From Actinobacteria bacterium 69-20 (GTDB lineage: Bacteria; Actinomycetota; Actinomycetes; Mycobacteriales; Nakamurellaceae), in contig MKSW01000022.1 of NCBI GenBank assembly GCA_001897425.1, positions 1-49,652 of the forward strand: 49,652 nucleotides of DNA, in the 5' to 3' direction. The notes under the pieces are model-generated. The model saw nothing but the letters and a program-made list of their open reading frames with translations, searched no databases and was not told the DNA's origin. A program made the translations under genes and the position numbers. Positions 24,277-46,860 of the stretch are shown here, one piece after another (within the stretch, counting starts at the first letter, position 1; each line of letters begins with the position of its first letter).

Positions 24277-24663
24277 ATGCCCAATCCCGTGGTCACCGGC
24301 GCGACACTGGCCTGCACGTTCGGCATGGCACCGTCCACCATGAACGTGATCCGCCCGAACGTCCTGGTCGAGAGCCGGCCCGCCGGCACCATCATGGACA
24401 TGGCGCCGGTCGCCAACATCCCGCCGTTCGGTATGTGTCAGTCGCTGGCCAATCCCACCGTCGCCGCCGCCACGGCTGCTGCCCTGGGCACCCTCACCCC
24501 GATGCCGTGCGTGCCGGTGATCGTCGGCCCGTGGGCGCCGGGCGCGCCGACCACCGTCGTCGGCGGGTCACCCATGCTCACCGCCGGGTCCCAGCTGCAC
24601 TGCGCGTACGGCGGCGTGATCTCGGTCGTCGTGCCGGGGTCGACCACGACACAAGCCTCATAG
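24277..24663 (+). CDS. PAAR-like protein (DUF4280), putative CIS spike tip
   Basis: The 128-residue protein is built of short glycine-rich turns with repeated P-x-x-V-G-G-type hairpins: T-G-A-T-L-A-C-T-F-G-M-A-P-S, then V-P-V-I-V-G-P-W-A-P-G, then V-V-G-G-S-P-M-L-T-A-G-S-Q-L-H-C-A-Y-G-G. This is the DUF4280 PAAR-like fold that caps the spike of contractile injection systems. Several Cys and His could bind a metal at the tip. The start ATG 24277 has GAGGGAG upstream. It heads the CIS cluster but is separated from the sheath gene by a small hairpin and a promoter-like region. Confidence 0.85.
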   Translation: MPNPVVTGATLACTFGMAPSTMNVIRPNVLVESRPAGTIMDMAPVANIPPFGMCQSLANPTVAAATAAALGTLTPMPCVPVIVGPWAPGAPTTVVGGSPMLTAGSQLHCAYGGVISVVVPGSTTTQAS

Positions 24664-24679
24664 CGCGTCATAGCGCGCT
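24662..24679 (+). terminator. Small hairpin after the PAAR-like gene
   Basis: AGCGCG (24662-24667) pairs with CGCGCT (24674-24679) around TCATAG and is followed by TTTGTT, a weak intrinsic terminator layout that would partly separate the tip gene from the sheath transcript. Confidence 0.45.
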
Positions 24680-24682
24680 TTG

Positions 24683-24767
24683 TTGAAAATCTGTCACGAA
24701 ATAGACGTAGGGCTATTCCCTCTTGCCGCTGCGAGTGACATGATCGCTGGGAGTCACTCTTCGTGAC
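24683..24767 (+). promoter_or_regulatory. Sheath-gene leader with promoter-like box and repeated GTCAC/GTGAC half-sites
   Basis: A TTGAAA (24683-24688) could be a -35, but its best -10 (TAGGGC at 24708) is 19 bp away and weak. Downstream, GAGTGAC (24733-24739) pairs with GTCACTC (24753-24759), while GTCAC (24753-24757) can alternatively pair with GTGAC (24763-24767). A further GTCAC is at 24693-24697. The arrangement suits either a repressor operator or two mutually exclusive RNA hairpins controlling the structural genes. Confidence 0.45.
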
Positions 24768-24797
24768 ACCTCCAGGTTGCAATCCGTAGGAGCGGGA

Positions 24798-26372
24798 ATG
24801 CCAAACTATGCCGCACCAGGCGTATACGTCGAGGAAGTTCCGTCGTCCGAAAAGTCGTTGACCGCGGCGCCGACCGCGATCGCCGCTTTCGTCGGGTTCA
24901 CCGAGAAGGCGCCGACGGACGATCCGAACGATCCGGAGGGTCTTGCCCCCCGCCTCGTCACCAGCTGGACCCAGTACGAACAGCTCTACGGCAGCTTCTG
25001 CGCGGGTGCCGTGCTGCCGCTGTCGGTCTACGGATACTTCGCGAACGGCGGCTCGATCGCCTACATCGTGCGGATCCCCAACACCGCGCCGTCCGGCCAG
25101 CCGTCGCGCCTCGAACTGCCCGCGCCGGACCGCGCACTCGGCCTGCCGATCGCGGTGGAGAGCATCGAGCCGGATGCCGACATCTCCATCGTCGTCGAGA
25201 CCAACGAAGATGCCGGCGGCGCCGATGACGAGCCGAACCCGTTCAACATCACGGTCCGTTCCGGCGGGACCGAGGTCGAATCCTTCGAGAACCTGACCCT
25301 CGGCAAGGGCGACCGCAACGCCGCAACGGTGATCAACAAGACGTCCACCAAGATCAAGGTTGAGGTCCTGCTGGACGAGACGGCCGATCTCGCCGGCCAG
25401 ATCGAGATCGTCAAGCCGGGCATTTACTCGCTGGCCAAGGCCGCGCCGACGCCGGTGCCGGTCAACGGCCGCAAGTTCGCCGGTTCTGCCTCGGCACGCC
25501 AGGGCATCAACGGCCTTGCCGTCGCGGAGGACGTCACCATGGTGATCGTCCCGGATCTCGTCACCGCCGCCACCAAGGAGGACGGCTCGATCGACCTCGG
25601 CCTGTGGAAGTCGGTGCAGACCACGCTGATCAGCCATTGCGAGCAGAACGGCAACCGCATGGCGGTGCTCGACTCCCCGCCCGGAATGAACCCGCAGCAG
25701 GTCAAGGAATGGCGCAGCGATGTGGCCATGTACGACTCCGCCTTCGCCGCGTTCTACTACCCGTGGATCAAGGTCGAGAACCCGATCGGCACCAACGGCG
25801 ACGCCGAGGTGGTCATCCCGCCGAGCGGCCACGTCGCCGGCGTGTGGGCCCGCACCGACGACACCCGCGGGGTGTGGAAGGCGCCGGCCAACGACACCAT
25901 CCGCGGCGTCCTGGATGTCGAGTACGCCGTCACCCAGAACGAGCAGGGCCTGCTCAACCCCATGGGCATCAACTGCATTCGCCCGTTCGGCACCCGCGGC
26001 ATCCGCATCTGGGGTGCGCGCACCCTGTCGTCCGATTCGGATTGGCGCTACATCAACGTGCGCCGGCTGTTCAACATGATCGAGACGACGGTGGCGCAGG
26101 GAACCCAGTACGCCGTCTTCGAGCCGAACGACATGAAGCTGTGGGAAGGCGTCAAGCGCACGCTCGACGGGTTCCTTCGTGGACTGTGGAGCCTGGGTGC
26201 CCTGTTCGGCGCCTCCGCCGATCAGGCCTACTACGTCAAGTGCGACGCCGAGACCAACCCACCGGAATCCATCGACCAGGGCCTGATGGTGTGCGAGGTC
26301 GGTATCGCTCCGGTCAAACCGGCCGAGTTCGTCGTCTTCCGCATCGCCCAACACAAGCAGACCGCGAGCTGA
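24798..26372 (+). CDS. Contractile injection system tail sheath protein
   Basis: The sheath surrounds the inner tube and contracts to drive it through a target membrane. The 524-residue protein starts M-P-N-Y-A-A-P-G-V-Y-V-E-E-V-P-S, the classic sheath N-terminus, continues I-A-A-F-V-G-F-T-E-K-A-P, and ends with the conserved sheath C-terminal region (W-R-Y-I-N-V-R-R-L-F-N-M-I-E, then F-E-P-N-D-M-K-L-W). Start ATG 24798 has GGAG upstream. The region between (about residues 110-250) is the variable surface domain. It is the second gene of the cluster, followed 47 bp later by the first tube gene. Confidence 0.96.
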   Translation: MPNYAAPGVYVEEVPSSEKSLTAAPTAIAAFVGFTEKAPTDDPNDPEGLAPRLVTSWTQYEQLYGSFCAGAVLPLSVYGYFANGGSIAYIVRIPNTAPSGQPSRLELPAPDRALGLPIAVESIEPDADISIVVETNEDAGGADDEPNPFNITVRSGGTEVESFENLTLGKGDRNAATVINKTSTKIKVEVLLDETADLAGQIEIVKPGIYSLAKAAPTPVPVNGRKFAGSASARQGINGLAVAEDVTMVIVPDLVTAATKEDGSIDLGLWKSVQTTLISHCEQNGNRMAVLDSPPGMNPQQVKEWRSDVAMYDSAFAAFYYPWIKVENPIGTNGDAEVVIPPSGHVAGVWARTDDTRGVWKAPANDTIRGVLDVEYAVTQNEQGLLNPMGINCIRPFGTRGIRIWGARTLSSDSDWRYINVRRLFNMIETTVAQGTQYAVFEPNDMKLWEGVKRTLDGFLRGLWSLGALFGASADQAYYVKCDAETNPPESIDQGLMVCEVGIAPVKPAEFVVFRIAQHKQTAS

Positions 26373-26419
26373 CGGACCGGCTCGTCTTCCGACTGGCACG
26401 CACATAAGGAGCGCAACAC

Positions 26420-26896
26420 ATGCCCAACTTCCTGCAGGAAGACACCCTGATCGCCCAGAACTTCTTCCTGGAGATCAAGGGCGAGATCATCACCTACCTC
26501 TCCGGCGTGTCCGGCTTGGACATTGCGATGGAGGTCGCCGAGGTGGTCCAGGCGGCGCCGGACGGCAAGAAGGTGATCCGAAAGATGCTCGGCACCCACA
26601 TCAAGCCGCCGGACCTTTCGCTGACCCGAGTGGCCCCGACGGACATGGGGAAGGACGCCATGTGGGGCTGGTTCAACGAGATCTATAACAAGGGCATGCC
26701 GGTGGGGAACCGCGGGTCGGAGCGCAAGGACGGCTCCATCGTGATCTACGACTCCACCGGTGCCGAGGTCGCGCGGTTCAACTTCTACAACGGCTGGCCG
26801 TCGAAGATCGCCACGGACCAGCTGTCGGTGGACTCCAACGACCCCGTCAAGGAGACCATCACCCTGACGATCGAACGGCTTGAGCGCACGAAGTGA
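26420..26896 (+). CDS. CIS inner tube protein 1 (gp19-like)
   Basis: The 158-residue protein has the tube fold of the T4 gp19/Hcp-like family: N-F-F-L-E-I-K-G-E-I-I-T-Y-L-S-G-V-S-G-L near the start, then a loop with D-G-K-K-V-I-R-K-M-L-G-T-H-I-K-P-P-D and the closing beta strands F-N-F-Y-N-G-W-P-S-K-I. AAGGAG precedes ATG 26420. Its stop overlaps the next start (GTGA). It is the Afp1/Pvc1-type major tube or first tube variant. Confidence 0.94.
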   Translation: MPNFLQEDTLIAQNFFLEIKGEIITYLSGVSGLDIAMEVAEVVQAAPDGKKVIRKMLGTHIKPPDLSLTRVAPTDMGKDAMWGWFNEIYNKGMPVGNRGSERKDGSIVIYDSTGAEVARFNFYNGWPSKIATDQLSVDSNDPVKETITLTIERLERTK

Positions 26897-27384
26897 GTCT
26901 TCGCACCGAATACGAGTTCACGCTGCCCCGCGGCTATGTCGATGCCGCGGGCAGCGTGCATAAGAAGGGTGTCATGCGGCTGGCGACGGCCCGCGACGAG
27001 TTGGAGCCGCTGCGCCATCCGACCGTCTCCGGGCCGGACGATCCGCGACTCACGCTGATGATTCTCGCGCGCGTCGTCACCAAGCTCGGCGACGTCCCGA
27101 TGATCACGGTCAATGAGATCGAGGGGTTGTTCGCCGCGGACCTCGCCTTCCTGCAAGACTTCTACGGGGTGATCAACTTCGGCACCCAGGAGGAGTACGA
27201 GGCGTTGCTGGCGGCGCAGGCCGAGGCGGGCCCGGTCGTCGGGGAGCGACCGGACACCGACGGTGTTGCCCGCGAGACCGAGGATTCCGGCGCCGGTGAC
27301 GGGGAGGCTGAGAGCAGCGACGTCGCCGAGCCCGGTCCGGCGGTGCGGACGCGGGTGCAGGAAGTCCCCCGCAGTAAGAACTGA
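26893..27384 (+). CDS. Phage tail assembly chaperone-like protein
   Basis: The 163-residue product starts at GTG 26893, overlapping the tube stop. The first 100 residues (T-E-Y-E-F-T-L-P-R-G-Y, K-K-G-V-M-R-L-A-T-A-R-D-E-L, then L-F-A-A-D-L-A-F-L-Q-D-F-Y-G) match the gpE/gp41-type tail assembly chaperones of phage tails and contractile systems. The last 60 residues form an acidic disordered tail. It would keep tube or measure protein soluble before assembly. Confidence 0.82.
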   Translation: MSLRTEYEFTLPRGYVDAAGSVHKKGVMRLATARDELEPLRHPTVSGPDDPRLTLMILARVVTKLGDVPMITVNEIEGLFAADLAFLQDFYGVINFGTQEEYEALLAAQAEAGPVVGERPDTDGVARETEDSGAGDGEAESSDVAEPGPAVRTRVQEVPRSKN

Positions 27385-27435
27385 GCGGGCGGCGGGTGCG
27401 GTGGCAACCGATGCGGCCGCGGGGAAAGCACAGCG

Positions 27436-27609
27436 GTGAAGCGATATCCGGTCGATGCGTTGTGGCAGGAGATTGCGTATCTGGCGTACCACCTGCATTG
27501 GCCGCTCGACGACATCCTCGATCTCGAGCACATGGATCGGGTGACGCTGATCCGGGCGGTCGTGTCGTTGAACCAGCGAGCATGGGAGGCTGCGCGTGAC
27601 TTCGCCTAG
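27436..27609 (+). CDS. 57-aa small CIS protein (DUF6760-like)
   Basis: This short gene starts at GTG 27436 and ends at TAG 27607-27609, overlapping the second tube gene by 14 bp. The peptide V-K-R-Y-P-V-D-A-L-W-Q-E-I-A-Y-L-A-Y-H-L continues H-W-P-L-D-D-I-L-D-L-E-H and ends in an amphipathic helix. This matches the small proteins found at this place in actinobacterial and cyanobacterial contractile systems and recalls the second tail-assembly chaperone (GT-like) of phages. Its position after the chaperone supports that role. Confidence 0.75.
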   Translation: MKRYPVDALWQEIAYLAYHLHWPLDDILDLEHMDRVTLIRAVVSLNQRAWEAARDFA

Positions 27610-28075
27610 TCAACTCACGCCGCTCGGCGGCGACGGCCAGGTCGGCAGTAACTTCCTACTCGAGGTCGACGGCGTCGAGATCGGCATGTTCGCCTCCGTG
27701 TCCGGCCTGCAGGTCTCCGTGCAGACGGAGGACCTTGTCGAGGGCGGCCAGAACGGTTACGCCCGAAAGCTTCCCGGCCGCATGGAGTGGCCGAACATCG
27801 TGCTCTCGCGCGGGCTTATCCAGTCGGACAACCTCTTCGACTGGTTCTCCAAGACCTCCGGCGAAGGATTCGCCGCCGCCGGCAACAAGCTCAAGCGGTG
27901 CACCGGTGCCATCACGGCCATCGGGTCCGACGGCTCCCGGATGCGGTCCTGGAACCTCACCGGCTGCTTCCCCGTGCGCTGGAAGGGCCCCGACTTCAAC
28001 GTCACGAGTAGCGACGCGATCTCCGAGGAGCTGGAGATCGCCCACGAGGGATTCCGCAGCTCCACGCAGGCGTAA
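27596..28075 (+). CDS. CIS inner tube protein 2
   Basis: The 159-residue second tube paralog reads S-N-F-L-L-E-V-D-G-V-E-I-G-M-F-A-S-V-S-G-L-Q, close to the first tube but with a longer N-terminus. W-F-S-K-T-S-G-E-G-F and A-I-S-E-E-L-E-I-A-H-E-G-F mark the strand-helix core and the end. In eCIS particles a second tube protein (Afp5-type) forms the ring that joins tube to baseplate. Start GTG 27596 has GGGAGG upstream. Confidence 0.93.
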   Translation: MTSPSQLTPLGGDGQVGSNFLLEVDGVEIGMFASVSGLQVSVQTEDLVEGGQNGYARKLPGRMEWPNIVLSRGLIQSDNLFDWFSKTSGEGFAAAGNKLKRCTGAITAIGSDGSRMRSWNLTGCFPVRWKGPDFNVTSSDAISEELEIAHEGFRSSTQA

Positions 28076-28078
28076 ATC

Positions 28079-31000
28079 ATGGCTGCCGATCAGGGGGACG
28101 CCCGGACCCGGTTGGGCCGGTCCGCCGCCGCGCGGTTCGTCCTGCGCCATCACCCCTCCGGGGGCGTCGCCCGGACGCCCGGCATCGGTATCGTCGCCAG
28201 CGCCGCCCGACGATTCGCTGCCGGTGTCGCCCGCCCCGTCGAGATCCGCCGGCAACTCGCCGGCCCCGGCGAGATCCGGCCCCGCGGCTACGAGCCCGTG
28301 AGTGCCCCCCCGCGCTGGTGGGTCCCTGTCGAGCACGGGCCGACGCATGCACCCGCGCATACGCCCGCACCGGCACACGCCTCCGCGCCGGCACAGACAT
28401 CTCCGGCATTCACCGCTGCCGCCGCGGCGCCAGTGGCTACCCCGGCCTCGACGCCTGCCCCTACACATGCACCGGTGCTAGCGCGCACAATCGCCTCGGC
28501 CACGATGCCCCCGTCCGCCGCGGTGCCCACGCCGACCGCGACGCCAGCCGCGGCGCACGCGCCCGACCTCCGCTCCTGGGGTACGACCGCCGCGTCGATC
28601 GCCAGCACCCCACTTCCCGCGCGCGGCCTGCCCCGCGCCGCCCGGCTCGTTCCCACCGAGAAGACGTACTCCCCAGGCGGTTTCGCCGCCACTATGAGGG
28701 GTGCCCCGATCCCCGTGCGCCGCATGAAGGAGGTCGTCGGCGCCGGCGCCATGACCGGCGTCGGCGCCAGGCTGCAGCCGCCAACCCAACCCCATGCGCA
28801 GCCATCAACGCCAACGCACACACAATCGCCGACCCAGCAGCCGACCCACACGCCCGGCCAGTCGCACGGCCCGGCGAGCACGCAGCCGCACACCGCTGCG
28901 GCCCGGCACGGTTCAGCGGAACCGCCGGGGGTGCCTCCGGGGAGCGGCTCGGCGCACCGGCCGGATGCGGCTGGCGCTGCTCCCCGTATCGCGTCGGCTG
29001 GGCAAACGGTGCCTACCGGGCCTGCAGCGTCCGCAGCGGCCACTCGGTCCGCAGCGGCCACTCAGTCTGCAGTGCCCACTCCACCCGCAGCGCTCACGAG
29101 GCCAGCGGCGGCGACCCCAGCCGGCGCACCCGCAGCGCCCCTAGCGCCTACCCCACCCGCAGGGCTAACCCCGCCCGGCACGTGGCCCGCGTCGACCGGT
29201 CGTTCCACGCGGGCCGCCGTCCGACCACCGAGCCGCGTGAGTCTGCTCCGGCGCGCCTGGGCGGGCGACAGCGGATTCGTCGGACGCCGTGCGCAGATCT
29301 GGCCACCGGCACCGGCCACCGAGCCCCGACCGACCGTGCGCCCCGCGCCGGCTGCGAGCCCCACACGGATCGCAGGATCCGCATCGCCTGCGAGCCCCGC
29401 ACCGACGGCAACGACCGCAAACTCCGCATCGGCGCCTACCCCGACGTCCATCCCGGCCGCACCCACCCCGACGTCCGCGACGTTGCGCCGGTCGCCCGTC
29501 GCGCAGCAACCGAGCCCCCAGAAACCCACCGCGCAGCAACCCGCGGCACAGCAACCCAGCGTGCCCGCACCGACGCCAGCGACCCCCGGCTCGATGCCCG
29601 CCATGTCGCTGCCAGGCGTCTCGCCGAGATCGCTCAGTCATCCCGCCGGAGTTCCCGCCGGTACTCTAGGCGATGCTCAGCCCCCCGCCACGAACGCCGT
29701 TCCGGGCCTAGGCCGAACCGCCGTGGCCGGCACTTCCACGAGTTCTCCTCTGGCGCCTCCTTCCCCGGCGAACGCGTCGAATCCATCGAATCCATCGATG
29801 CCCACGACTCTGGCACAGACCTCCGACAGTGCTCTTGTTACTGCTGGCGCGGCGACATTCGGCCGTTCGTCCCTCCGCACTTCGGTACGCCTACCGGCCC
29901 AGCTGGTGAACGTCATCGTCCGTCGTCAGTTTCGGCCGAATCTGGCCGTCCCGTCCGCACTGCCGCGCGTCGGCACGGCGCTGCCGAGCCCCAGACCTGC
30001 GCAGACAGCGTGGCGAGCCCCGGACGTCGTCCGGACGCGCAATGTCACGGACGCCGCGCCCCGCCCGGCTTTGCTACCTGGGTCGCGGCGCATCGCGGAT
30101 ACCCAGCCGCGGGCATCCGCATCGATCCTGAGATCCGTTGCGACGCCGACATCGCAAGCGCGCATGACGCCCGAGCCGGCTTCGCGCGCAAGGATCTCGG
30201 GCGAAGCTAGGACCGGCGCGCTGCCCGGCGCCCCTACCTATGCCCCGATCCCCGACGCGCAGATCGGCGCCGTCGCAACGTCTCTCGACCGCGCCCCGGG
30301 CAGCATCATCCGCCGATACCGCGCCGCTGTCGGGGACAGCCCACCCGCTTCATCGGCATCGGCGTCCTCTCGGGGTCGCGTCTCGGCACCGAGCATGGCA
30401 CTGGGCGCGGCCCTGACCGCCACGCCGAGCCCGTCCATGCGCACGGCGCTCGCGTCCCCGAGCGCGATCCGGCCGAGGCGGATCGATGACGTTCCCAGGC
30501 CTCCCGCAGGGCCAGCACGCAGTACGAGCCCACGCGAACCAGTCGTGCTCCGCTCCCCACAGCGCGGCAACGCGCCGAGCACCGTGGTGAGCACCGCGGT
30601 GAGCATCCATGACCGCGCTCCGGGCGGCATCATCCGCCGTTACCGCGCAACAATCGGAGCTGGCTCACCGGCCTCATCGACACCCGCTTACTCGCGAGAT
30701 CCCGACGCAGCACAGCGACCGGCACTAGGCCCGATCATGCGCGCAGCACTCTTATCCCCGAGCGCAATCCGGCCGAGCCGGATCGACGACGTTCCCCGGC
30801 CCCCCGCAGGACCGGGCCACAGATCGATGCCACGCGGCCCCGTCATCCGCCGTTCGATGGCCATCCCGGCAACAGGCCGAGCGACAAGCACTACTGCGCC
30901 GCTGCGCCCGGGCGCCGTGGGCAAGGCCGTCACGTCGTCGACTCACTCTGCGCAGCAGCGAATGTCGTCATATTCGATGTCGCCTCGCGGCGCCACCATC

Positions 31001-31609
31001 AGTCCCGCGACGCGGTCGTTGCTAGCCGACGGCGCACCGCGTATTGCCACGCTGCCGCTCATGCCGCAGCCCGATCAGCCATCGAACGCCCCAGTCCCAG
31101 CCACGTCCCGGGGAGCCATCCGCCCGTCCGCCCTCGACCTCATCCGATCGGCCAAACCCGCTCCACCGCTGGGTCTTCCGGTGCCTTCGCCGCCGCCCAC
31201 CGCTGTCGGTGCCGCCGACGAGCAGGTCATCCGGCGCTGGGCCGACGGGAAGGTGCCCGGCCGGTCGGCCACCAGCGGACCCGGACGGACCCCGATGCTC
31301 GGCGCGCACCGGGGCCCCGCGCAACCCGGCCCCGCCCCTGCCGCGACCCCACCCGCCATGATCGGAACACACCGGGGTCCCGCGGGCCCCGCACAACCCG
31401 CCCCTGCCGCGACCCCCGTCGAGAATCCCCAGAACGCTGTCGTTGCAGAATCTCCGGCCGTTCCACCTGCCCATCCCACCCCCGTCCAGTCGCAACTGAC
31501 CTCGCGGGAATGGGACGCGCTCGTCGATGAGGTAACCCGCCGGATCGAGGACCGTATCGCGGTCGAACTCACCCGGCGCGGCCGCCGCTTCATCCCGCGG
31601 ACCATGTGA
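28079..31609 (+). CDS. Giant Pro/Ala/Thr-rich disordered CIS-associated protein (1176 aa)
   Basis: The product sits between tube 2 and the LysM baseplate gene, the place of Afp6-type or cargo genes. It starts three bases after the tube stop. The N-terminal 60 residues are basic and partly helical (S-A-A-A-R-F-V-L-R-H-H-P). Residues about 75-1130 are low-complexity Pro/Ala/Thr/Ser/Arg with almost no hydrophobic core. Four [IV]-I-R-R-[YWS] motifs occur near 743-747, 851-855, 922-926 and 1050-1054. Two tandem repeats share R-A-P-G-x-I-I-R-R-Y-R-A and I-D-D-V-P-R-P-P-A-G-P. The final 37 residues form a helix with S-R-E-W-D-A-L-V-D-E-V, also present in the next small protein. The function is unknown. 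It could be cargo, a lumen-filling or a docking protein. A long helix, as expected of a tape measure, is not predicted. Confidence 0.8.
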   Translation: MAADQGDARTRLGRSAAARFVLRHHPSGGVARTPGIGIVASAARRFAAGVARPVEIRRQLAGPGEIRPRGYEPVSAPPRWWVPVEHGPTHAPAHTPAPAHASAPAQTSPAFTAAAAAPVATPASTPAPTHAPVLARTIASATMPPSAAVPTPTATPAAAHAPDLRSWGTTAASIASTPLPARGLPRAARLVPTEKTYSPGGFAATMRGAPIPVRRMKEVVGAGAMTGVGARLQPPTQPHAQPSTPTHTQSPTQQPTHTPGQSHGPASTQPHTAAARHGSAEPPGVPPGSGSAHRPDAAGAAPRIASAGQTVPTGPAASAAATRSAAATQSAVPTPPAALTRPAAATPAGAPAAPLAPTPPAGLTPPGTWPASTGRSTRAAVRPPSRVSLLRRAWAGDSGFVGRRAQIWPPAPATEPRPTVRPAPAASPTRIAGSASPASPAPTATTANSASAPTPTSIPAAPTPTSATLRRSPVAQQPSPQKPTAQQPAAQQPSVPAPTPATPGSMPAMSLPGVSPRSLSHPAGVPAGTLGDAQPPATNAVPGLGRTAVAGTSTSSPLAPPSPANASNPSNPSMPTTLAQTSDSALVTAGAATFGRSSLRTSVRLPAQLVNVIVRRQFRPNLAVPSALPRVGTALPSPRPAQTAWRAPDVVRTRNVTDAAPRPALLPGSRRIADTQPRASASILRSVATPTSQARMTPEPASRARISGEARTGALPGAPTYAPIPDAQIGAVATSLDRAPGSIIRRYRAAVGDSPPASSASASSRGRVSAPSMALGAALTATPSPSMRTALASPSAIRPRRIDDVPRPPAGPARSTSPREPVVLRSPQRGNAPSTVVSTAVSIHDRAPGGIIRRYRATIGAGSPASSTPAYSRDPDAAQRPALGPIMRAALLSPSAIRPSRIDDVPRPPAGPGHRSMPRGPVIRRSMAIPATGRATSTTAPLRPGAVGKAVTSSTHSAQQRMSSYSMSPRGATISPATRSLLADGAPRIATLPLMPQPDQPSNAPVPATSRGAIRPSALDLIRSAKPAPPLGLPVPSPPPTAVGAADEQVIRRWADGKVPGRSATSGPGRTPMLGAHRGPAQPGPAPAATPPAMIGTHRGPAGPAQPAPAATPVENPQNAVVAESPAVPPAHPTPVQSQLTSREWDALVDEVTRRIEDRIAVELTRRGRRFIPRTM
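30287..30862 (+). repeat. Two tandem repeats inside the giant CIS protein gene
   Basis: Two units (about 30287-30559 and 30611-30862) both encode D-R-A-P-G-x-I-I-R-R-Y-R-A, an alanine/serine stretch, then S-P-S-A-I-R-P-x-R-I-D-D-V-P and R-P-P-A-G-P. The DNA is also similar (GCCGAG, GACGTTCCC blocks), so the duplication is fairly recent. Confidence 0.8.
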
Positions 31610-31616
31610 GCGTGCC

Positions 31617-31790
31617 ATGACTCTTCCGACCAGCGCACTCGAAACCCCGCCCCGCGCCACCGATATCGCGGATTCGCTCACCAGCCGGGAATGGGACGAG
31701 CTCACGGACGAGGTGCTGCGCCGCCTCGAACGCCGGGTCACCGACGACCTCGCCCGCCGCGGCCGCCGAGCCAAGCCGAGGGTGTTATGA
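31617..31790 (+). CDS. 57-aa protein sharing the C-terminal helix of the giant CIS protein
   Basis: The gene runs from ATG 31617 to TGA 31788-31790, eight bases after the giant. The peptide is a short Ala/Thr/Pro head followed by L-T-S-R-E-W-D-E-L-T-D-E-V-L-R-R, L-E-R-R-V and a basic end A-R-R-G-R-R. The core is the same as the end of the preceding protein (L-T-S-R-E-W-D-A-L-V-D-E-V-T-R-R), so both may bind the same partner. No family is recognised. It may regulate or occupy the site on the baseplate used by the giant. Confidence 0.78.
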   Translation: MTLPTSALETPPRATDIADSLTSREWDELTDEVLRRLERRVTDDLARRGRRAKPRVL

Positions 31791-31859
31791 CATGAACGGC
31801 GAAGACATGAACGGCGAGAATACTTGTGTTGCAGGCATTATTCGCGAGAGGAGTGAACC

Positions 31860-32519
31860 ATGGCGCTGACCGACAAGGCCTACCTCATGATCGAGGGCAG
31901 CTCCGAGCGGATTCCGTGCATGTTCAACCCGTCCGAGCTGCAGATCAGCCGGTCGAACTCGTGGGATTCCCCGTCGCTGGCCGGCCAGGGCGTGCAGAAG
32001 GCGCGCTACACCGGCGCCGGCGCCGGATCGATGTCCTTGAACCTGACCTTCGACACCACCGACACCGGCAAGGCCGTCACCACGTACACCGGCAAGTTGA
32101 TGAAGCTGATGGACGTCGACCCCTCGCTGGGCGGCACGGATGAGCAGTCGAACAACGCCCGCCCGCCGTACGTCACGTTCCACTGGGGTGATCTGCATTC
32201 CTTCGAGGCGGTCGTCTCCAACCTGACGCTGCAGTTCACCTACTTCTCATCGACGGGAGTGCCGCTGCGGGCGAAGGTTTCGATGTCGCTGACGCAGTAC
32301 AAGCAGTCCAGCGCGTTTGGCCCGCAGAACCCGACGTCGGGCACGCCGCACCCGCACCGGGTGCATCGCGTTCAACCCGGTGAGACGTTGGATCGCATCT
32401 CCGCCCGCTACTACGGCGACCCCACCCGGTGGCGCCAGATCGCTTCTGCCAACGGCATTACCGATCCGCTTGCGGTGAGATCCGGTACCCTGCTGTCGAT
32501 TCCGCGGACCTCGATATGA
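31860..32519 (+). CDS. CIS baseplate protein with C-terminal LysM domain (Afp7-like)
   Basis: The 219-residue protein starts at ATG 31860 behind GAGAGGAG. The first 160 residues carry the gp53/Afp7-type baseplate fold: F-N-P-S-E-L-Q-I-S-R-S-N-S-W, then L-N-L-T-F-D-T-T-D-T-G-K, then P-P-Y-V-T-F-H-W-G. The last 50 residues form a LysM domain: H-R-V-Q-P-G-E-T-L-D-R-I-S-A-R-Y-Y-G-D. In related particles this clamps the tube to the spike. Its stop overlaps the VgrG-like start (ATGA). Confidence 0.94.
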   Translation: MALTDKAYLMIEGSSERIPCMFNPSELQISRSNSWDSPSLAGQGVQKARYTGAGAGSMSLNLTFDTTDTGKAVTTYTGKLMKLMDVDPSLGGTDEQSNNARPPYVTFHWGDLHSFEAVVSNLTLQFTYFSSTGVPLRAKVSMSLTQYKQSSAFGPQNPTSGTPHPHRVHRVQPGETLDRISARYYGDPTRWRQIASANGITDPLAVRSGTLLSIPRTSI

Positions 32520-34282
32520 CGCCGCCCGCGATCGGAGCGATCGCCCCAGTCATCAAGGTCGCCGGATCGGAGTTGGCGGCTTCGACGCTCAGCGCGCTCA
32601 TCGGCATGACGGTCAGCAGCGGGCTGCGCCTGCCGAGTCGCGCGCGCCTGGACTTCCTCGACGACGGATTCTCGATTAGCGCAGGAACCACGTTCGATCT
32701 CGGCGCGAAGGTGGTGGTGGCAGCGGGCACCACCACCCTGTTCACGGGCGAGATCACCGGTGTGGAACTGGATGTGGACCGCGGTGCGTCGAATCTCCGG
32801 GTCATCGCCGACGACGCCGCCTACAAGATGACGCTCGGCAACAAGACCGTGACCTACGCACAGATGAGCTACTCCGACATCGTGTCGAAGATCGTCGCGG
32901 CGTACGGTCTGACGGCGAGCATTTCCTCGACCGGTGATGTACAGGAATACGTGCTGCAGACGGACAGCGATTTCGGCTTCATCACCGAGATCGCCGACCG
33001 TGTCGGCTACGACTGGTGGGTCGACGGCGGCGGCACGTTCCAGTTCCATCCGATGGGGGCGCAGTCCGATCTCGTTGCGACGCTGACATGGGGATCAGAC
33101 CTCGCGAGTCTTCGGCACTTCACGGTCCGCGCCTCGGCGCTGCACCCCCAGCAGGTCACCGTGAACGGTTGGGATGCTGGGCAGAAGCAACCGCTGACGG
33201 CCCAAAGCCAGTCGGTCGGCACGAAACCCGATGCGTCGCTCGTCACGCCCTACCTGGACGCGTCAAGCCTAGCCTCGTCGAGCAAGGTCACCACGGCGTA
33301 CCGTATGTTCGGCACGCAGGGCGACGGTGCGAAACTGGCGGACAGCGCGGCGATACGGGCGCTGGCCGGGTCGGTCGTCGCGGAGGGCCGCTGCGGGATC
33401 ATCGCGGCGATCGTGGTCGGGAAAAAGGTGTCTATCTCGGATGTCGGACCGGCCTCCGGCACCTACCCCGTCACCGAGGTGGAGCACATCTACAGCGAAA
33501 ACGGTTTCGACACCCGTTTCGTCGCAGGCGATCGCGAGCCGACGTCGTTGGTGGACACGCTCGCCGCGCCGGTCCCGTCCAGCTTCCGACAGGATGCGCT
33601 GGTGATCGGTGTAGTGACGAACCTCGGTGATTCCAATTCTCCGAAGGGCTATATCAAGGTCAAGTACCCGACCCTCGGGAGCCAGATAGAAAGCGCCTGG
33701 GCACGCGTGGTGTCGATGGGTGCGGGATCGTCGCGCGGTATGACGTTCCTCCCGGAGGTCAACGACGAGGTGATCATCGGCTTCGAGGGCGGTGACGTGA
33801 CGCGTCCGCTCGTGCTCGGCGGGTTGTACAGCGGGGCGAGCCCGGCGCTGGACTACGGGACCAAGGACGGTTCTATCGAGAAGCGCCAGATCGTCTCCCG
33901 GCTCGGCCATGTCGTCGAGTTGGGCGACGGCCAGCAGCCGGCGGATCAGCACATCTGGCTCACCCTCGCCGGGGGCGAGCATGCGGTCAAGCTCGGCAAG
34001 GACGGGCTCACCGCGACAGTGCCGTCGGGCGAACCGGTCTCGATCTCAGCAGGCGACACGAAGATCGAGTTCGACAAGCAGGGGAACATCACGCTGTCGG
34101 GCCAGAAGGTGACGATCAAGGCCACGCAGGACGTCGAGATCTCCGGCATGAACGTGAAACTCAAGGCGAACGTCGCCGTGGAGGCCTCGGGCACCCAGGC
34201 GAAGATGTCCGGGTCCGCACAGGCCGAGCTCTCCTCCGGCGGGCAGACATCGGTCAAGGGTTCGATGGTGATGATCAACTGA
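32516..34282 (+). CDS. VgrG-like spike protein (gp27-gp5 fusion, Afp8-like)
   Basis: The 588-residue protein forms the trimeric spike. Residues 1-340 are the gp27-like barrel pair (D-D-A-A-Y-K-M-T-L-G-N-K-T, S-D-F-G-F-I-T-E-I-A-D-R-V-G-Y-D-W-W). Residues about 360-440 form the OB-fold (V-K-Y-P-T-L-G, W-A-R-V-V-S, F-L-P-E-V-N-D-E-V-I-I-G-F). Residues about 500-588 form the repetitive beta-helix (I-T-L-S-G-Q-K-V-T-I-K-A-T). Start ATG 32516 overlaps the LysM stop. No lysozyme domain is present. Confidence 0.95.
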   Translation: MTPPAIGAIAPVIKVAGSELAASTLSALIGMTVSSGLRLPSRARLDFLDDGFSISAGTTFDLGAKVVVAAGTTTLFTGEITGVELDVDRGASNLRVIADDAAYKMTLGNKTVTYAQMSYSDIVSKIVAAYGLTASISSTGDVQEYVLQTDSDFGFITEIADRVGYDWWVDGGGTFQFHPMGAQSDLVATLTWGSDLASLRHFTVRASALHPQQVTVNGWDAGQKQPLTAQSQSVGTKPDASLVTPYLDASSLASSSKVTTAYRMFGTQGDGAKLADSAAIRALAGSVVAEGRCGIIAAIVVGKKVSISDVGPASGTYPVTEVEHIYSENGFDTRFVAGDREPTSLVDTLAAPVPSSFRQDALVIGVVTNLGDSNSPKGYIKVKYPTLGSQIESAWARVVSMGAGSSRGMTFLPEVNDEVIIGFEGGDVTRPLVLGGLYSGASPALDYGTKDGSIEKRQIVSRLGHVVELGDGQQPADQHIWLTLAGGEHAVKLGKDGLTATVPSGEPVSISAGDTKIEFDKQGNITLSGQKVTIKATQDVEISGMNVKLKANVAVEASGTQAKMSGSAQAELSSGGQTSVKGSMVMIN

Positions 34283-34731
34283 TGGACGAGATCATGCTGC
34301 CCACCACCGGTGCGACGCGCCCGGCCGAGTACGACGCGACCTTCATCGGCCGCGGGTTCTACTGGCCGCTTCAGGTCGACCACACCGGGTCGATCCGTAT
34401 GACGGACGGCGCCCCCGACCTGGACCGCTCCATGGCGGTGATCCTCGCTACCGCGCCCGGTGAGCGCGTCATGCGACCCGAGTTCGGTTGCAAGATATGG
34501 GATCTGCTGTTCGAGCCGATCACGGCGAACCTGCTCGGCCTGATGGCGCAGGTGGTCCGCGAGGCGCTGGCCCAGTGGGAGCCGCGGGTGGAGATCGAAG
34601 ATGTCCAACCGGTTCCCGACGACAACGACGCGACCCTCATCCGCATCATGGTCAGTTACCGGGTGAAGGCCACGAACGACCGGCGCAACCTGGTCTACCC
34701 GTTCTATGTGATCCCGCACGAGGAGACCTGA
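34282..34731 (+). CDS. gp25-like baseplate wedge protein (Afp9-like)
   Basis: This 149-residue lysozyme-like fold protein of the gp25/TssE family initiates sheath polymerisation on the wedge. The family stretch G-E-R-V-M-R-P-E-F-G-C-K-I-W-D-L-L-F-E-P is present (about residues 55-74), followed by V-R-E-A-L-A-Q-W-E-P-R-V-E-I. The start overlaps the VgrG-like stop (TGATG). The length is normal. Confidence 0.95.
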   Translation: MDEIMLPTTGATRPAEYDATFIGRGFYWPLQVDHTGSIRMTDGAPDLDRSMAVILATAPGERVMRPEFGCKIWDLLFEPITANLLGLMAQVVREALAQWEPRVEIEDVQPVPDDNDATLIRIMVSYRVKATNDRRNLVYPFYVIPHEET

Positions 34732-34732
34732 G

Positions 34733-36691
34733 ATGGCGCTTCCAGCACCGAATCTGGACGATCGCACGTTCCAGGACATCGTCGACGAGGCGAAGCGACT
34801 CATCCCGCGCTACACGCCGGAGTGGACGAACCATAACCTGTCGGACCCGGGTGTCGCGCTGATCGAGCTCTTCGCGTGGATGAGCGAGACGGTGCTGTAT
34901 CGCCTGAACCAGGTGCCGGACAAGCTCTTTGTGCACTTCCTCAACTTGGTGGGCATCGACCCGTTCCCGCCGTCGGTGGCGACGGTGCCGCTCACCTTCT
35001 GGCTGTCCGCGGTGCAGCCGAACCCGGTCACCGTTCCGGCCGGCATGCAGGTCGCCACGAGTGCCGAGAGCGGCGAGACCGCCGTCGTTTTCACGACTGT
35101 CGACGATCTCGTCATCTCGCAGCCGGTCTTCAAGGCTGCAGCCACCACCGATGTCGCCGGTGAGCGCATCGTCGACGTCACCGAGGATCTGCGTTTCCCC
35201 GGCTCGGACGTGCAATGCTTCACCACCCCGGGGCGGGACGGCCGGTTGGTCCCCGGCGACGCCGTGTTGTTCGGCTTCGAGGCCTCGCTAGCCGGCACGG
35301 CCCTGCGGCTCACGTTCGACGCGCGCGCCGAGGGCCTGGGCGTCGATCCGACGAATCCGCCGCTGGACTGGGAGGTCTGGAACGGCGAGGCGTGGATTCA
35401 GACCGATGTCTACTCGGATTCCACCGGCGGGTTGAACCGGGCCGGTGAGGTTGTCCTCATGGTTCCGTTGGAGCACGAGATCCTCACGCTGGCAGGTATT
35501 CCCGCGTACTGGCTGCGGTGCCGGCTGCTGGCGCCGCTGCCCGGTCAGCCAACGTATCAGGCCTCGCCGCGGGTCGCGTCGCTCGAGGTCGCGGCGCTCG
35601 GCGGTACGGTCACGGCAGAGCACTCCGCGGAGGCGGCCGGGGAGGTGCTGGGCCGGTCGGACGGCAGTCCCGGCCAGGAGTTTCGCGTCAGCCGGTTCCC
35701 GGTGTTGCCCCGGCGGACCGGTGAGACGATCATCGTCACCGACGCAGGCGGGCCGGTCGAATGGACCGAGGTGGAAGACTTCTCGCGGTCCAAGGGCACG
35801 GATCGGCACTTCGTGTGGAACTCGTCCTCCGGCGTGGTGAGTTTCGGGCCGCGAATCCGCTACCCGGACGGCTCGGTTCGTCAGCACGGCCGGATTCCGC
35901 ACGACGGCGCCGAGATCAAGGTGACGGCCTACCGCACCGGCGGTGGCGCGTCCGGCAACGTGGGCGCCCGCACGCTCACCGTGTTGCGTTCGGCGGTGCC
36001 GTATGTCGCGTCGGCCGTCAACCTGCGCCAGGCGACCGGTGGCGTGGACCCGGAGTCCGTGCAGGAGGCCAAACGCCGCGGCCCGCTCACCCTGCGCACC
36101 GGCCAAAGGGCCGTGACCGCACAGGATTTCGAGCGATTGACGTTGGAATCATCGATCGAGGTGGCTCGCGCCCGCTGCTTGCCGTCCGCCGACGGGCGGC
36201 GCGCCGTGCGCGTGCTGGTGGTCCCGCAGGTGCGGACCGATCCGCAGTTGCACCAGCTGGACGACTTCGCCCTGTCCGCCCCGTTGCTCGCGCGGATTTC
36301 GAACCATCTCGACCAGCATCGGCTTGTCGGTTCCGCGATCGAAGTGGGAACGCCTTATTACCAAGGCATTTCAGTGGCGGCCCTGGTGCACGCGCCCGCC
36401 GGTCGCCCGCTCGCCCTGATCCGGCAGCGGGCCGTCGCCCAGCTCACCCGGTACCTGCACCCGCTCACCGGCGGCGCGGACGGCGACGGCTGGTTGTTCG
36501 ACGCGGACGTCAATGCGGCAACGATCACGCAACTGCTGGAGAGCGTCGAGGGCATCGACCGGGTGGATGAGGTGCTGCTCTTCGAATACGACCTGCGCAG
36601 CGGCGCCCGCATCGGCGGCGGGCGCGACGTGATCCGACTGGATGCCCAGTCGCTGTTCCTGTCCGGGCCGCACCGGGTGGTGGTGCGGTGA
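34733..36691 (+). CDS. Putative baseplate assembly protein (gpJ/gp6-like, Afp11-like)
   Basis: The 652-residue protein is the large baseplate wedge component. It starts at ATG 34733, one base after the gp25 stop. The N-terminus Y-T-P-E-W-T-N-H-N-L-S-D-P-G-V-A-L-I-E-L and F-A-W-M-S-E-T-V-L-Y-R-L-N-Q-V-P-D-K match the 'putative baseplate assembly protein' family. The middle beta region (Y-R-T-G-G-G-A-S-G-N-V-G-A) and the end (W-L-F-D-A-D-V-N-A-A-T-I) are typical. It forms the iris ring that holds the spike before firing. Confidence 0.94.
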   Translation: MALPAPNLDDRTFQDIVDEAKRLIPRYTPEWTNHNLSDPGVALIELFAWMSETVLYRLNQVPDKLFVHFLNLVGIDPFPPSVATVPLTFWLSAVQPNPVTVPAGMQVATSAESGETAVVFTTVDDLVISQPVFKAAATTDVAGERIVDVTEDLRFPGSDVQCFTTPGRDGRLVPGDAVLFGFEASLAGTALRLTFDARAEGLGVDPTNPPLDWEVWNGEAWIQTDVYSDSTGGLNRAGEVVLMVPLEHEILTLAGIPAYWLRCRLLAPLPGQPTYQASPRVASLEVAALGGTVTAEHSAEAAGEVLGRSDGSPGQEFRVSRFPVLPRRTGETIIVTDAGGPVEWTEVEDFSRSKGTDRHFVWNSSSGVVSFGPRIRYPDGSVRQHGRIPHDGAEIKVTAYRTGGGASGNVGARTLTVLRSAVPYVASAVNLRQATGGVDPESVQEAKRRGPLTLRTGQRAVTAQDFERLTLESSIEVARARCLPSADGRRAVRVLVVPQVRTDPQLHQLDDFALSAPLLARISNHLDQHRLVGSAIEVGTPYYQGISVAALVHAPAGRPLALIRQRAVAQLTRYLHPLTGGADGDGWLFDADVNAATITQLLESVEGIDRVDEVLLFEYDLRSGARIGGGRDVIRLDAQSLFLSGPHRVVVR

Positions 36692-37380
36692 GCGAGCAGG
36701 GCGAGCGGGTCGGATCGGAGCTCGAGGTGCGTGCCTCGTCCGATCCCATGGTGGTCGAGGGAACGGTCGACCGACCGGCCGACGGAACGGCCGAGAGCCG
36801 CGCCCCCGCGATCACCCGCCGCGACGCGCGCGTCAGCCGTCCGCCACGGCACCCGCTCTGGCTGGTGAACCAGCTGCCGGTGGGCATGCTCAACAGCGAG
36901 TTTTTCGTCCGCTTCGTGTCGATCTTCCAGGAGCTCGCCGAGACCCTGATGGACGGAGCCGACCAGATCGAGCACGTCCCGGACGCCACGGTCACGCCGA
37001 CGCCGCTGCTCGCCTACCTCGCGTCGTGGATCGACGTTCGCACGGTCGACCCGTCGCTGGCGGAGGACGTGCAGCGAGTGATCCTGCGCAGCTCGGCGAA
37101 GGCACTGGCGTTGCGCGGCACCAAGTCTGGACTCGAACAGTACCTGCGGATGCTCTCCGGCGACAAGGCACAGGTCGAGGACGGCGGTGGCGTGTGGGGC
37201 GAGGGCGCCTCACCGGCCGATGTTGCGGAGGTGGCCTGGGTGCGGATGCGCGTCACCGGTACCGGGCACCTGTCCGAGGACGAGTTCGTAGCCCTGGTGC
37301 GCGACGAGATCCCGGCGCATGTCCGGGCGGAATTGTTCGTCGGCGATCGGCGCGTGCTGAGCACCGTCGAGGGACGATAG
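36688..37380 (+). CDS. Phage tail protein I-like protein (baseplate, Afp12-like)
   Basis: The 230-residue product starts at GTG 36688, overlapping the previous stop. It carries an extra disordered head of about 50 residues. The family core is S-E-F-F-V-R-F-V-S-I-F-Q-E-L, then Y-L-A-S-W-I-D, then A-K-A-L-A-L-R-G-T-K-S-G-L-E-Q-Y-L. It is the gpI-type partner of the gpJ-like wedge. No receptor-binding fibre gene follows, which is unusual for an extracellular eCIS. Confidence 0.9.
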   Translation: MSEQGERVGSELEVRASSDPMVVEGTVDRPADGTAESRAPAITRRDARVSRPPRHPLWLVNQLPVGMLNSEFFVRFVSIFQELAETLMDGADQIEHVPDATVTPTPLLAYLASWIDVRTVDPSLAEDVQRVILRSSAKALALRGTKSGLEQYLRMLSGDKAQVEDGGGVWGEGASPADVAEVAWVRMRVTGTGHLSEDEFVALVRDEIPAHVRAELFVGDRRVLSTVEGR

Positions 37381-37394
37381 GGGAGCGGTAGGCG

Positions 37395-38069
37395 ATGGTG
37401 AAGCACGGCGAAACGGGCGGCGAGAATGCCGACACCACAAGCGATATCGAGTATATGAGGCGCCTGCGATCAGACTATCCCGCACCGGCATATCAGCCGA
37501 CCGAGTATGACGCTGCTCCGGGGTCGGACGATGTCCCACCGTATGCGCCTCTCGCGACCACGATCGTGACAGCGCCCCCAGCGCCCCCGGCAACCACGGC
37601 CGTCGCGGCCGTCGCGGCACCCTCTGCGCAGGAGTGGATCAGCTGCCCGGAGTGCGGCGAGGGCGCCATGGTGGACCTCGCGCAGCGCCGTGCCGAGGAC
37701 TTCTGCTCGAACTGCGACTTCCCGCTGTTCTGGGCGAGAAGCGCCGTGGTGCTGATGGCCGGCGACGAGACCGGCGCCTCCCTGCGGCGTCTGCCCGGCA
37801 CGGTCGGCCGCGCGGCCACGGCGTCGGTGGCATGCCCGCACTGCGGGGAGCCCAATTCGCCCGCGGCGGTGAACTGCATCCGCTGCGGCCTGCCGATGGT
37901 CGTCATCGCGCCCGAGCCGGAACCCGAGCTCGTGTATTACGCGCCCGAGCCGGAACCCGAACCCGAGCCTGAGCCGGAACCCGACAACTCGGCGATCTGG
38001 ATCATCGCGATCTGCATGGTCGTGGTGATCCTCGCGGTGGTCCTCACGCTGATCCTGCAGCACCGGTAG
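37395..38069 (+). CDS. Double zinc-ribbon protein with C-terminal membrane anchor
   Basis: The 224-residue protein closes the CIS operon (15 bp after the previous gene, GGGAG upstream). Residues 1-80 are disordered and Pro/Ala/Tyr-rich. Two four-Cys ribbons follow: Cys84/87 with 104/107, and Cys147/150 with 161/164. A run of Glu-Pro dipeptides lies at about 173-196. A single hydrophobic helix (I-W-I-I-A-I-C-M-V-V-V-I-L-A-V-V-L) ends at the basic C-terminus, a tail-anchor with the ribbons in the cytoplasm. No exact family is recognised. By position it could tether or trigger the injection machine at the membrane. Confidence 0.85.
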   Translation: MVKHGETGGENADTTSDIEYMRRLRSDYPAPAYQPTEYDAAPGSDDVPPYAPLATTIVTAPPAPPATTAVAAVAAPSAQEWISCPECGEGAMVDLAQRRAEDFCSNCDFPLFWARSAVVLMAGDETGASLRRLPGTVGRAATASVACPHCGEPNSPAAVNCIRCGLPMVVIAPEPEPELVYYAPEPEPEPEPEPEPDNSAIWIIAICMVVVILAVVLTLILQHR

Positions 38070-40566: not shown

Positions 40567-40673
40567 GACTCCGCAGCGTAACCGGTGCGGCTGAGTAACT
40601 CGGGCATGTCGCGGCCGGCTGGCGAACCTTTTGCCGAGAATTGGGCACGTGTTGACGCGCCTGCGATCGGGCA

Positions 40674-46799: not shown

Positions 46800-46830
46800 T
46801 TGCGTTTCGGGGCGCCACGTGCGATATAGT
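46800..46830 (+). promoter_or_regulatory. Promoter of the second CWB2 gene
   Basis: The -35 TTGCGT (46800-46805) and -10 TATAGT (46825-46830) have a 19-bp spacer. The -10 box is one of the best matches in the window. Between the previous stop (46536) and this promoter the sequence holds only a small GTGTC/GACAC hairpin (46741-46753). Confidence 0.6.
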
Positions 46831-46860
46831 CACACCGGATCGTTCCGATAACGGTCCGTA

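What the first reader, a model, noticed from the sequence alone, without database searches (positions are those of the whole stretch)
24277..38069. Compact actinobacterial contractile injection system without visible ATPase, terminator, tape measure or fibre
Sheath, two tubes, chaperone, LysM, VgrG-like, gp25, gpJ and gpI genes form one tight cluster, so a contractile device is certain at family level. Canonical eCIS clusters also carry an AAA+ ATPase (Afp15-type), a tail terminator (Afp16-type), a tape measure (Afp14-type) and usually fibres (Afp13-type), none of which I can find. Lack of fibres fits an intracellular device like the one described in Streptomyces, linked to cell death. Either the missing parts lie elsewhere or this is a reduced lineage.
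Basis: partly seen in the sequence, partly recalled or inferred. Interest (0 to 1): 0.85.

Follow-up and report, generated by a model that had tools for sequence, protein, structure and literature searches.

The report
Complete contractile injector, split in two
A bacterial spring-loaded protein injector that looked incomplete has its missing parts about 45,000 bases further along the same chromosome piece, and it carries a large, little-noticed gene that may set the injector's length.

Summary
The structural cluster is real: PAAR-like tip, sheath, two tubes, tail chaperone, LysM hub, VgrG, gp25, gpJ, gpI. ATPase and terminator are absent from this cluster but not from the genome. The only Pvc16_N terminator lies on the same contig, 71.6 kb from the sheath, next to an AAA+ ATPase, Sco4256-type membrane proteins and eCIS_core genes. 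In five relatives the two blocks are 125 bp to 25.8 kb apart; here 45.6 kb separate them. So it is a split but complete system of the Streptomyces (subtype IId) kind, not a reduced lineage. Fibre absence is normal for that kind. The gene in the fibre position (37395-38069) is CisA-like but lacks CisA's periplasmic domain. The 1176-aa Pro/Ala-rich ORF at 28079-31609 has counterparts in 67 of 68 assessable loci, including an S. coelicolor-identical one (1379 aa). It sits beside the tail chaperone and shares a C-terminal motif. It is my candidate for the missing IId tape measure: unproven, with a length trend from two genera only, no family match and one awkwardly short case.

The parts
24277..24663 (+). 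PAAR-like spike tip (DUF4280)
   Evidence: Pfam PF14107 E 2e-30; also found upstream of the sheath in 6 of 7 type-A relatives, the seventh (G012) being cut by the fetch edge
24798..26372 (+). contractile sheath (Cis2)
   Evidence: PF04984 and PF17482 over cut-off; S. coelicolor CIS sheath 8bky E 3e-135; start ATG 24798 read from the sequence
26420..26896 (+). inner tube (Cis1a-like)
   Evidence: PF06841 E 7e-22
26893..27384 (+). tail assembly chaperone (gpE-like)
   Evidence: phrog_508 tail assembly chaperone E 5.4e-7; no Pfam or NCBIfam match
27436..27609 (+). DUF6760 small protein
   Evidence: PF20546 E 6.7e-7, over cut-off
27596..28075 (+). tube initiator / second tube (Cis1b-like)
   Evidence: PF06841 E 1e-31
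28079..31609 (+). 1176-aa Pro/Ala-rich protein, low in order-promoting residues, with a conserved C-terminal motif; candidate tape measure or lumen protein
   Evidence: slot ORF of at least 450 aa in 67 of 68 assessable loci; dN/dS 0.45 against the sister species; order-promoting residues 0.18 against 0.35-0.37 for gpJ and sheath; no hydrophobic 19-aa window of 1.6 or more
31617..31790 (+). 57-aa ORF carrying a second copy of the same C-terminal motif; in the place where lineage-I clusters have a spike-plug gene (place recalled)
   Evidence: HMM of the motif E 4e-14; a separate copy also in the sister species G014 (E 1e-13), not in the other loci searched; no significant solved relative
31860..32519 (+). 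LysM hub protein (Cis7)
   Evidence: PF19266 E 4e-27, PF01476; 9gtp E 2.6e-29
32516..34282 (+). VgrG-like spike (Cis8)
   Evidence: PF04717 E 7e-21, PF05954 E 3.5e-11; start chosen by me from the overlap with the LysM gene
34282..34731 (+). gp25-like wedge (Cis9)
   Evidence: PF04965 E 1e-23
34733..36691 (+). gpJ-like wedge (Cis11)
   Evidence: PF04865; only solved relative at E 0.001 is S. coelicolor 9gtp, E 4e-163
36688..37380 (+). gpI-like wedge (Cis12)
   Evidence: PF09684 E 7e-9
37395..38069 (+). CisA-like membrane adaptor: two zinc ribbons, acidic linker, C-terminal hydrophobic helix, no periplasmic domain
   Evidence: ribbon pieces align with those of Streptomyces CisA (hhalign probability 97.8, E 1.1e-12); 10 residues after the helix window
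38086..49287 (.). start of the 45.6 kb that separate the two CIS blocks (cell-wall-binding-repeat and HNH-type genes, labels by eye)
   Evidence: the second CIS block begins at C22:83710, outside the window

Best explanation
This is the structural half of a complete contractile injection system of the Streptomyces cytoplasmic (subtype IId) kind in a Nakamurella species. It is genetically split into two convergent blocks 45.6 kb apart. Block 1 (window) builds spike, hub, wedges, sheath and tube. Block 2 (C22:83710-116013) supplies the terminator cap, two AAA+ ATPases, three membrane proteins of which two match the Sco4256 type, three eCIS_core proteins and an ADP-ribosyltransferase-like protein. 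Likely working order (inferred from Streptomyces and Photorhabdus work): the particle assembles in the cytoplasm; the ATPase loads cargo; the CisA-like protein brings the baseplate to the inner face of the membrane; contraction ejects the cargo into or through the producer's own membrane. Shown here: gene content, similarity, gene order. Inferred: assembly, loading, recruitment, self-directed action. Separately and with less confidence (about 0.42), the 1176-aa protein is the tape measure that sets tube length.
For: Single terminator hit, on the same contig; ATPase and eCIS_core genes beside it. Structural block and terminator/membrane-protein block are convergent in all 6 type-A genomes that have both on one contig (this genome included), gaps 125, 986, 2742, 8645, 25770 and 45640 bp. 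An ATPase relative exists in 7 of 7 type-A relatives, next to the terminator in 5. The sister species G014 shares the genes beyond the CisA-like gene. Best solved relatives are S. coelicolor CIS proteins. The 952-aa membrane protein matches the S. coelicolor-identical cluster, 32 percent over 185 aa, E 4e-17.
Against: Expression and assembly are untested, and the blocks were never shown to act together. No sheath tree was built, so IId is assigned by similarity. In relatives G008 and G012 the ATPase does not lie beside the terminator but on other contigs, so block 2 is not always kept whole. The genome is a draft (43 contigs, 98 percent complete), though both blocks lie on one 249-kb contig. 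The CisA-like protein lacks the periplasmic domain, so its role may differ.
Confidence: 0.9

Rival explanations
1. The 28079-31609 protein is not a ruler but a disordered cargo, tube filler or cargo anchor held by its C-terminal helix; tube length is set otherwise.
For: Low in order-promoting residues, unlike helical phage tape measures (recalled). In three Deinococcus records the counterpart, or its annotated C-terminal part, is labelled with the effector-core domain DUF4157, as in the Tme effector (PMC11126660, passages). One genome (L091) has only about 185 aa in the slot.
Against: Present in 67 of 68 assessable loci beside the chaperone/DUF6760 pair; absent in the one locus in full view that lacks the pair (L015, Kineosporia).
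Confidence: 0.42
2. A reduced, terminator-less and ATPase-less CIS lineage.
For: None of these genes lies in the cluster in the window.
Against: Terminator, ATPases and eCIS_core genes on the same contig, with the terminator block convergent to the structural block as in relatives.
Confidence: 0.02
3. The large slot ORF is a chance open frame in GC-rich DNA.
For: High GC makes long frames common; the S. clavuligerus annotation leaves it out.
Against: dN/dS 0.36-0.65, and third codon positions the largest class of differences, in 11 of 11 pairs that I chose; a shared C-terminal motif; annotated as a protein in two other Streptomyces records.
Confidence: 0.02
4. The device is secreted and acts on other cells, with a fibre encoded elsewhere.
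For: PMC12923769 (passages) reports many fibre genes in Actinobacteriota eCIS; two more eCIS_core genes lie on another contig.
Against: A CisA-like membrane protein occupies the usual fibre position; sheath and wedge are closest to the fibreless Streptomyces type. I did not search the genome for fibre families.
Confidence: 0.1

Closest known systems
S. coelicolor CIS (CISSc; subtype IId) and the S. lividans SLP
   Same: Closest sheath, hub, wedge and cap proteins; CisA-type gene directly after gpI; Sco4256-type membrane proteins; AAA+ ATPase; no Afp13 fibre and no typical Afp14 (published); the long ORF is present there too (1379-aa open frame).
   Different: Published as one cluster there, two blocks here; tube2 and the long ORF in swapped order; CisA-like protein here lacks the periplasmic domain; a DUF4280 tip is present (the SLP is reported without PAAR, PMC10286715, passage).
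S. davawensis CIS with the tape-measure-related effector Tme (PMC11126660, passages)
   Same: A very large ORF directly before baseplate genes.
   Different: Tme has predicted transmembrane and coiled-coil segments, DUF4157 and a nuclease domain; the window ORF has no Pfam domain over cut-off and no strongly hydrophobic window; coiled coils were not predicted here.
Afp / PVC (lineage I eCIS)
   Same: Overall plan, AAA+ ATPase (Pvc15 type, recalled), Pvc16_N cap, eCIS_core cargo.
   Different: No Afp13 fibre or recognisable Afp14 found in the cluster; one sheath, where Afp and Pvc have several (one search lists Afp2-4, Pvc2-4).
Deinococcus IId-like clusters on plasmids (D. psychrotolerans, D. 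aquaticus, D. taeanensis, D. actinosclerus)
   Same: Long ORF after chaperone and tube2, related C-terminal motif, 1535-1999-aa open frames.
   Different: Baseplate genes in a different order; part labelled DUF4157 in three of the four.

Membership tests
subtype IId contractile injection system | sheath, wedge and cap closest to S. coelicolor CIS proteins | tested here: met
   (gpJ at E 0.001 and terminator at E 0.01 match no other solved protein)
subtype IId contractile injection system | Pvc16_N terminator and AAA+ ATPase encoded with the system | tested here: met
   met at genome level, on the same contig, but not within one cluster
subtype IId contractile injection system | placement in the IId branch of a sheath or wedge tree | not tested
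   no tree was built; similarity only
subtype IId contractile injection system | cytoplasmic particles not released by living cells | not testable with these tools
   needs microscopy
Sco4256 family membrane protein | conserved N-terminal domain followed by a transmembrane helix | tested here: met
   952-aa protein E 4e-17, helix window at 255; 856-aa protein E 5e-9, windows at 276 and 671. The matched S. coelicolor genes are taken as Sco4256-4258 by position. 2641-aa protein: windows at 17 and 244, no direct match to that region
CisA (Sco4242) family | Cys-rich, probably zinc-binding part before the helix; position after gpI | tested here: met
   the compared pieces were cut at C-x2-C patterns, which favours alignment of the cysteines
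CisA (Sco4242) family | conserved periplasmic C-terminal domain after the helix | tested here: not met
   10 residues follow the helix window; so CisA-like, not filed as CisA
tape measure protein | large ORF between tail chaperone and baseplate hub genes | tested here: met
tape measure protein | homology to known tape measure families | tested here: not met
tape measure protein | protein length scales with tube length | tested here: inconclusive
   S. coelicolor 1379 aa (233 nm in situ, 268 nm model, 295 nm in another paper) against 1535-1999 aa in four Deinococcus species and 365 nm in a fifth
Afp/PVC lineage I eCIS | Afp13-type fibre and Afp14-type tape measure | tested here: not met
   none among the cluster genes by Pfam; genome-wide fibre search not done

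The most novel reading that the evidence does not exclude
IId contractile injection systems do have a tape measure: a long, low-order, fast-evolving protein encoded next to the tail chaperone and anchored in the hub by a conserved C-terminal helix. It was overlooked because it matches no family and is left unannotated in some genomes. In the Nakamurella-type branch it goes with a CisA-like anchor stripped to zinc ribbons and a tail helix.
Probability: 0.42. Interest if true: 0.75.

Novelty: new variant of a known kind. Interest (0 to 1): 0.52.

Why it matters
First, cluster-based surveys could score this complete system as fragments: one recent survey groups genes at most five apart (PMC12923769, passage), so some 'reduced' systems in catalogues may be split ones. 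Second, S. coelicolor particles have a uniform length while the tape measure gene is reported absent (PMC12237407, passage). A concrete candidate gene, present in an S. coelicolor-identical cluster, makes that open question testable in a laboratory strain. Third, a CisA-like adaptor without the periplasmic domain suggests which part of CisA a natural group can do without.

Tried and rejected
Reduced lineage: rejected. Chance ORF for 28079-31609: rejected. Link of the 57-aa ORF to a solved spike plug: no significant match. Cross-searches of the two C-terminal HMMs against 28,883 six-frame ORFs are weak: Nakamurella-type against Streptomyces-type gave E 4.5 and 6.9, among chance hits; the other way gave 0.002 for one Deinococcus ORF and 0.17-4.6 for Nakamurella-type ORFs, with an unrelated ORF at 0.5. 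Only the profile-profile comparison supports one family (probability 93.9, E 1.6e-7 for a single comparison). Repeats at the two edges of the 45.6-kb interval: only matches of 32-70 bp between cell-wall-binding-repeat genes, not enough to name a mechanism. The slot pick was flawed by an overlap filter and was replaced. In L117 and L121 the picked frame does not end in the motif; a motif-bearing frame was seen in another reading frame. In my first reading the terminator start was a GTC codon; the first GTG gives 209 aa. Roseiflexus and Calidithermus, with published particle lengths, could not be reached, so the length test rests on two genera.
Full report
WHAT IS IN THE WINDOW. The + strand operon from 24277 to 38069 encodes a DUF4280/PAAR-like tip, sheath, tube, gpE-like tail chaperone, DUF6760 protein, second tube, a 1176-aa Pro/Ala-rich protein, a 57-aa ORF, LysM hub, VgrG, gp25, gpJ, gpI and a zinc-ribbon membrane protein. 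The sheath and the two tubes are the only matches in the genome at E 0.001. The observation of a compact device without ATPase and terminator in this cluster is correct.

WHERE THE MISSING PARTS ARE. A whole-genome search with the terminator family PF14065 gave one hit, on the same contig, at C22:97202-97666 on the minus strand. Fetched DNA shows a second CIS block at about C22:83710-116013. It holds: three membrane proteins of 2641, 952 and 856 aa, minus strand, one after another; the terminator (209 aa from a GTG at 97681); an AAA+ ATPase with winged-helix domain, + strand; an eCIS_core protein of 678 aa; a two-component system; a 497-aa protein matching ADPrib_exo_Tox exactly at its cut-off (23.4 bits); an eCIS_core protein of 677 aa with only sub-threshold ADP-ribosyltransferase matches; an eCIS_core protein of 1019 aa; and a second AAA+ ATPase with winged-helix domain. 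Two further eCIS_core matches lie on contig C33.

WHY THE BLOCKS BELONG TOGETHER. Of 17 genomes of the family, the same 10 have a sheath and a terminator and 7 have neither. Eight carry this CIS type. In 6 of these 8 both blocks are on one contig; in the other 2 (G012, G014) they are on different contigs of fragmented assemblies. In all 6 the blocks are convergent. The distance from the CisA-like gene to the giant membrane-protein frame is 125 bp (G008), 986 (G011), 2742 (G013), 8645 (G003, where that frame is only 865 aa), 25,770 (G010) and 45,640 bp (the window's genome). So the ancestral arrangement was most likely contiguous, and genes accumulated at the convergent junction. An ATPase relative is found in 7 of 7 type-A relatives; it lies next to the terminator in 5 (G003, G010, G011, G013, G014), but in G008 and G012 the matches are on other contigs, so the ATPase gene too has moved in part of the genus. 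The sister species G014 has the same genes beyond the CisA-like gene, so the separation predates the two species on that side. What lies between (sugar and peptide transport, inositol-type metabolism, cell-wall-binding repeats) was labelled by eye only.

RELATION TO KNOWN SYSTEMS. Best solved relatives are S. coelicolor CIS proteins: sheath 8bky E 3e-135, gpJ 9gtp E 4e-163, terminator 9gts E 7e-20, LysM hub 9gtp E 2.6e-29. The papers PMC10066040 and PMC12237407 list these codes. Those papers say that the S. coelicolor and S. venezuelae clusters lack an Afp13-type fibre and a typical Afp14, and that S. coelicolor particles are nevertheless uniform in length, 233 nm in situ and 268 nm in the model (passages). 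PMC10020575 gives an average of 295 nm (passage). It also reports that the ATPase is needed for cell death but not for particle formation, that Sco4256-type proteins have an N-terminal domain, a helix and a further domain, and that the part of Sco4242 before its helix may bind zinc (passages). Its figure of Sco4256 relatives shows filamentous genera except Cyanothece; Nakamurella and Nocardioides, where I find such proteins, would extend that range if they are not mycelial, which is my own knowledge.

THE CISA-LIKE PROTEIN. The gene right after gpI has four C-x2-C pairs, an acidic linker and a C-terminal hydrophobic helix. Its ribbon pieces align with those of Streptomyces-type CisA (hhalign probability 97.8, E 1.1e-12, one comparison, 16 against 19 sequences). 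I had cut these pieces at C-x2-C patterns, which favours the match. Of 32 loci with the long ORF after tube2, the adaptor gene was found in 16; all 16 have only 5-11 residues after the helix window, and in the other 16 it was not found, mostly because the stretch ends too early. Of 35 loci with the ORF before tube2, 17 gave a protein with a helix, and none of these fell in the short-tail class. In the two fully in view (L118, L123) 164 and 161 residues follow; the other long-class proteins were cut by the fetch edge. I infer the same recruiting role without the periplasmic domain. The role is taken from S. coelicolor, where CisA is needed for contraction (PMC12237407, passages).

THE LONG PROTEIN. 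I laid out 97 fetched stretches. Eight had no tube2 and 2 duplicate others (L007, L009); of the remaining 87, 68 were assessable (chaperone or DUF6760 gene, tube2 and LysM gene in view; two Deinococcus loci were admitted without the LysM gene), 7 had tube2 and LysM but no chaperone or DUF6760 gene found, and 12 were cut too short. 67 of 68 have an open frame of at least 450 aa in the slot next to the chaperone pair: 32 after tube2, 35 before tube2; range 542-1999 aa, median 1094. Many loci are Streptomyces and not independent. The exception, L091, has about 185 aa there but keeps the motif (E 0.005). Of the 7, the motif was found in 6 (L076, L101-L103, L109, L111; E 1.6e-19 to 0.022); only L015 (Kineosporia) lacks chaperone, DUF6760 gene and ORF. 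In two of the 67 (L117, L121) the picked frame lacks the motif. All lengths are open frames, stop to stop. The S. coelicolor-identical genome has 1379 aa. S. clavuligerus has 1383 aa, left out of its annotation; two other Streptomyces plasmids annotate a hypothetical protein right after the DUF6760 gene. dN/dS is 0.36-0.65 in 11 pairs that I chose. Order-promoting residues average 0.163 in 66 slot ORFs (two duplicates included, three frames left out), against 0.345-0.367 in gpJ and sheath. The C-terminal 45 residues of the two types align as profiles (probability 93.9, E 1.6e-7).

IS IT A TAPE MEASURE? For: the slot (after chaperone and tube, before hub genes) is that of phage tape measures (general knowledge); conserved end, length-variable middle; largest gene of the window's structural operon. 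Length: S. coelicolor 1379 aa is 5.9 aa per nm at 233 nm, 5.1 at 268, 4.7 at 295. Four Deinococcus species have 1535, 1830, 1850 and 1999 aa, and a fifth, D. aquatilis, has 365 +/- 39 nm particles (PMC12998442, section 23 read): 4.2-5.5 aa per nm. The direction is right, but these are two genera and different species. The D. grandis record has a rearranged frame (1264 aa) and was left out. Against: no family match; composition unlike helical rulers; DUF4157 labels in Deinococcus; the 185-aa case; weak cross-searches; and in the passages I read no paper reports this protein in purified particles. Sle1, a tape-measure-related effector of S. lividans upstream of the sheath, is another gene, and particles without it look normal (PMC13277306, abstract and passages). 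My searches of the held library (on contractile injection with related terms; 74 for SCO4249, one unrelated use; 96 for separate loci; 97 for Nakamurella) listed no paper that I could see naming this ORF or such a split; of the listed papers I read only passages, and no supplements.

VERDICT. An ordinary IId-type parts list, unusual in being split, and carrying what I think is the best candidate for the missing length gauge of this group.

Noticed in passing
C22:114022-116013 (outside the window; L006:5022-7013): A second AAA+ ATPase with the same winged-helix plus AAA layout flanks the effector island; the ATPase found in the G003 stretch is closer to this one than to the first (54 against 44 percent identity).
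   Followed up: partly
G008:C1:378118-380010 and G012:C50, C209, C60: In two relatives the ATPase matches lie on contigs other than those of the CIS blocks.
   Followed up: no
C33:183397-183630 and C33:659305-659538 of the same genome: Two eCIS_core (DUF4157) matches far from the CIS blocks.
   Followed up: no
31617-31790: A stand-alone 57-aa copy of the long protein's C-terminal motif, seen only in this genome and its sister species among the loci searched.
   Followed up: partly
L091 (G428:C2): Slot gene shrunk to about 185 aa although the cluster is otherwise complete; a natural test case for the length idea.
   Followed up: partly
L128 (Deinococcus grandis plasmid) 17651-21442: A tube gene runs in one open frame into the long protein; chaperone, DUF6760 gene and second tube were not found, and a second sheath in pieces lies upstream.
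   Followed up: no
G004, G010, G011, G015: Another CIS with sheath and terminator about 3-13 kb apart: the only one in G004 and G015, an additional one in G010 and G011. In G004, the one looked at, the long ORF lies before tube2 as in Streptomyces.
   Followed up: partly
38086-49287 and C22:82087-83379: Cell-wall-binding-repeat genes (labelled by eye) stand at both edges of the interval that separates the two CIS blocks; only short DNA repeats are shared.
   Followed up: partly
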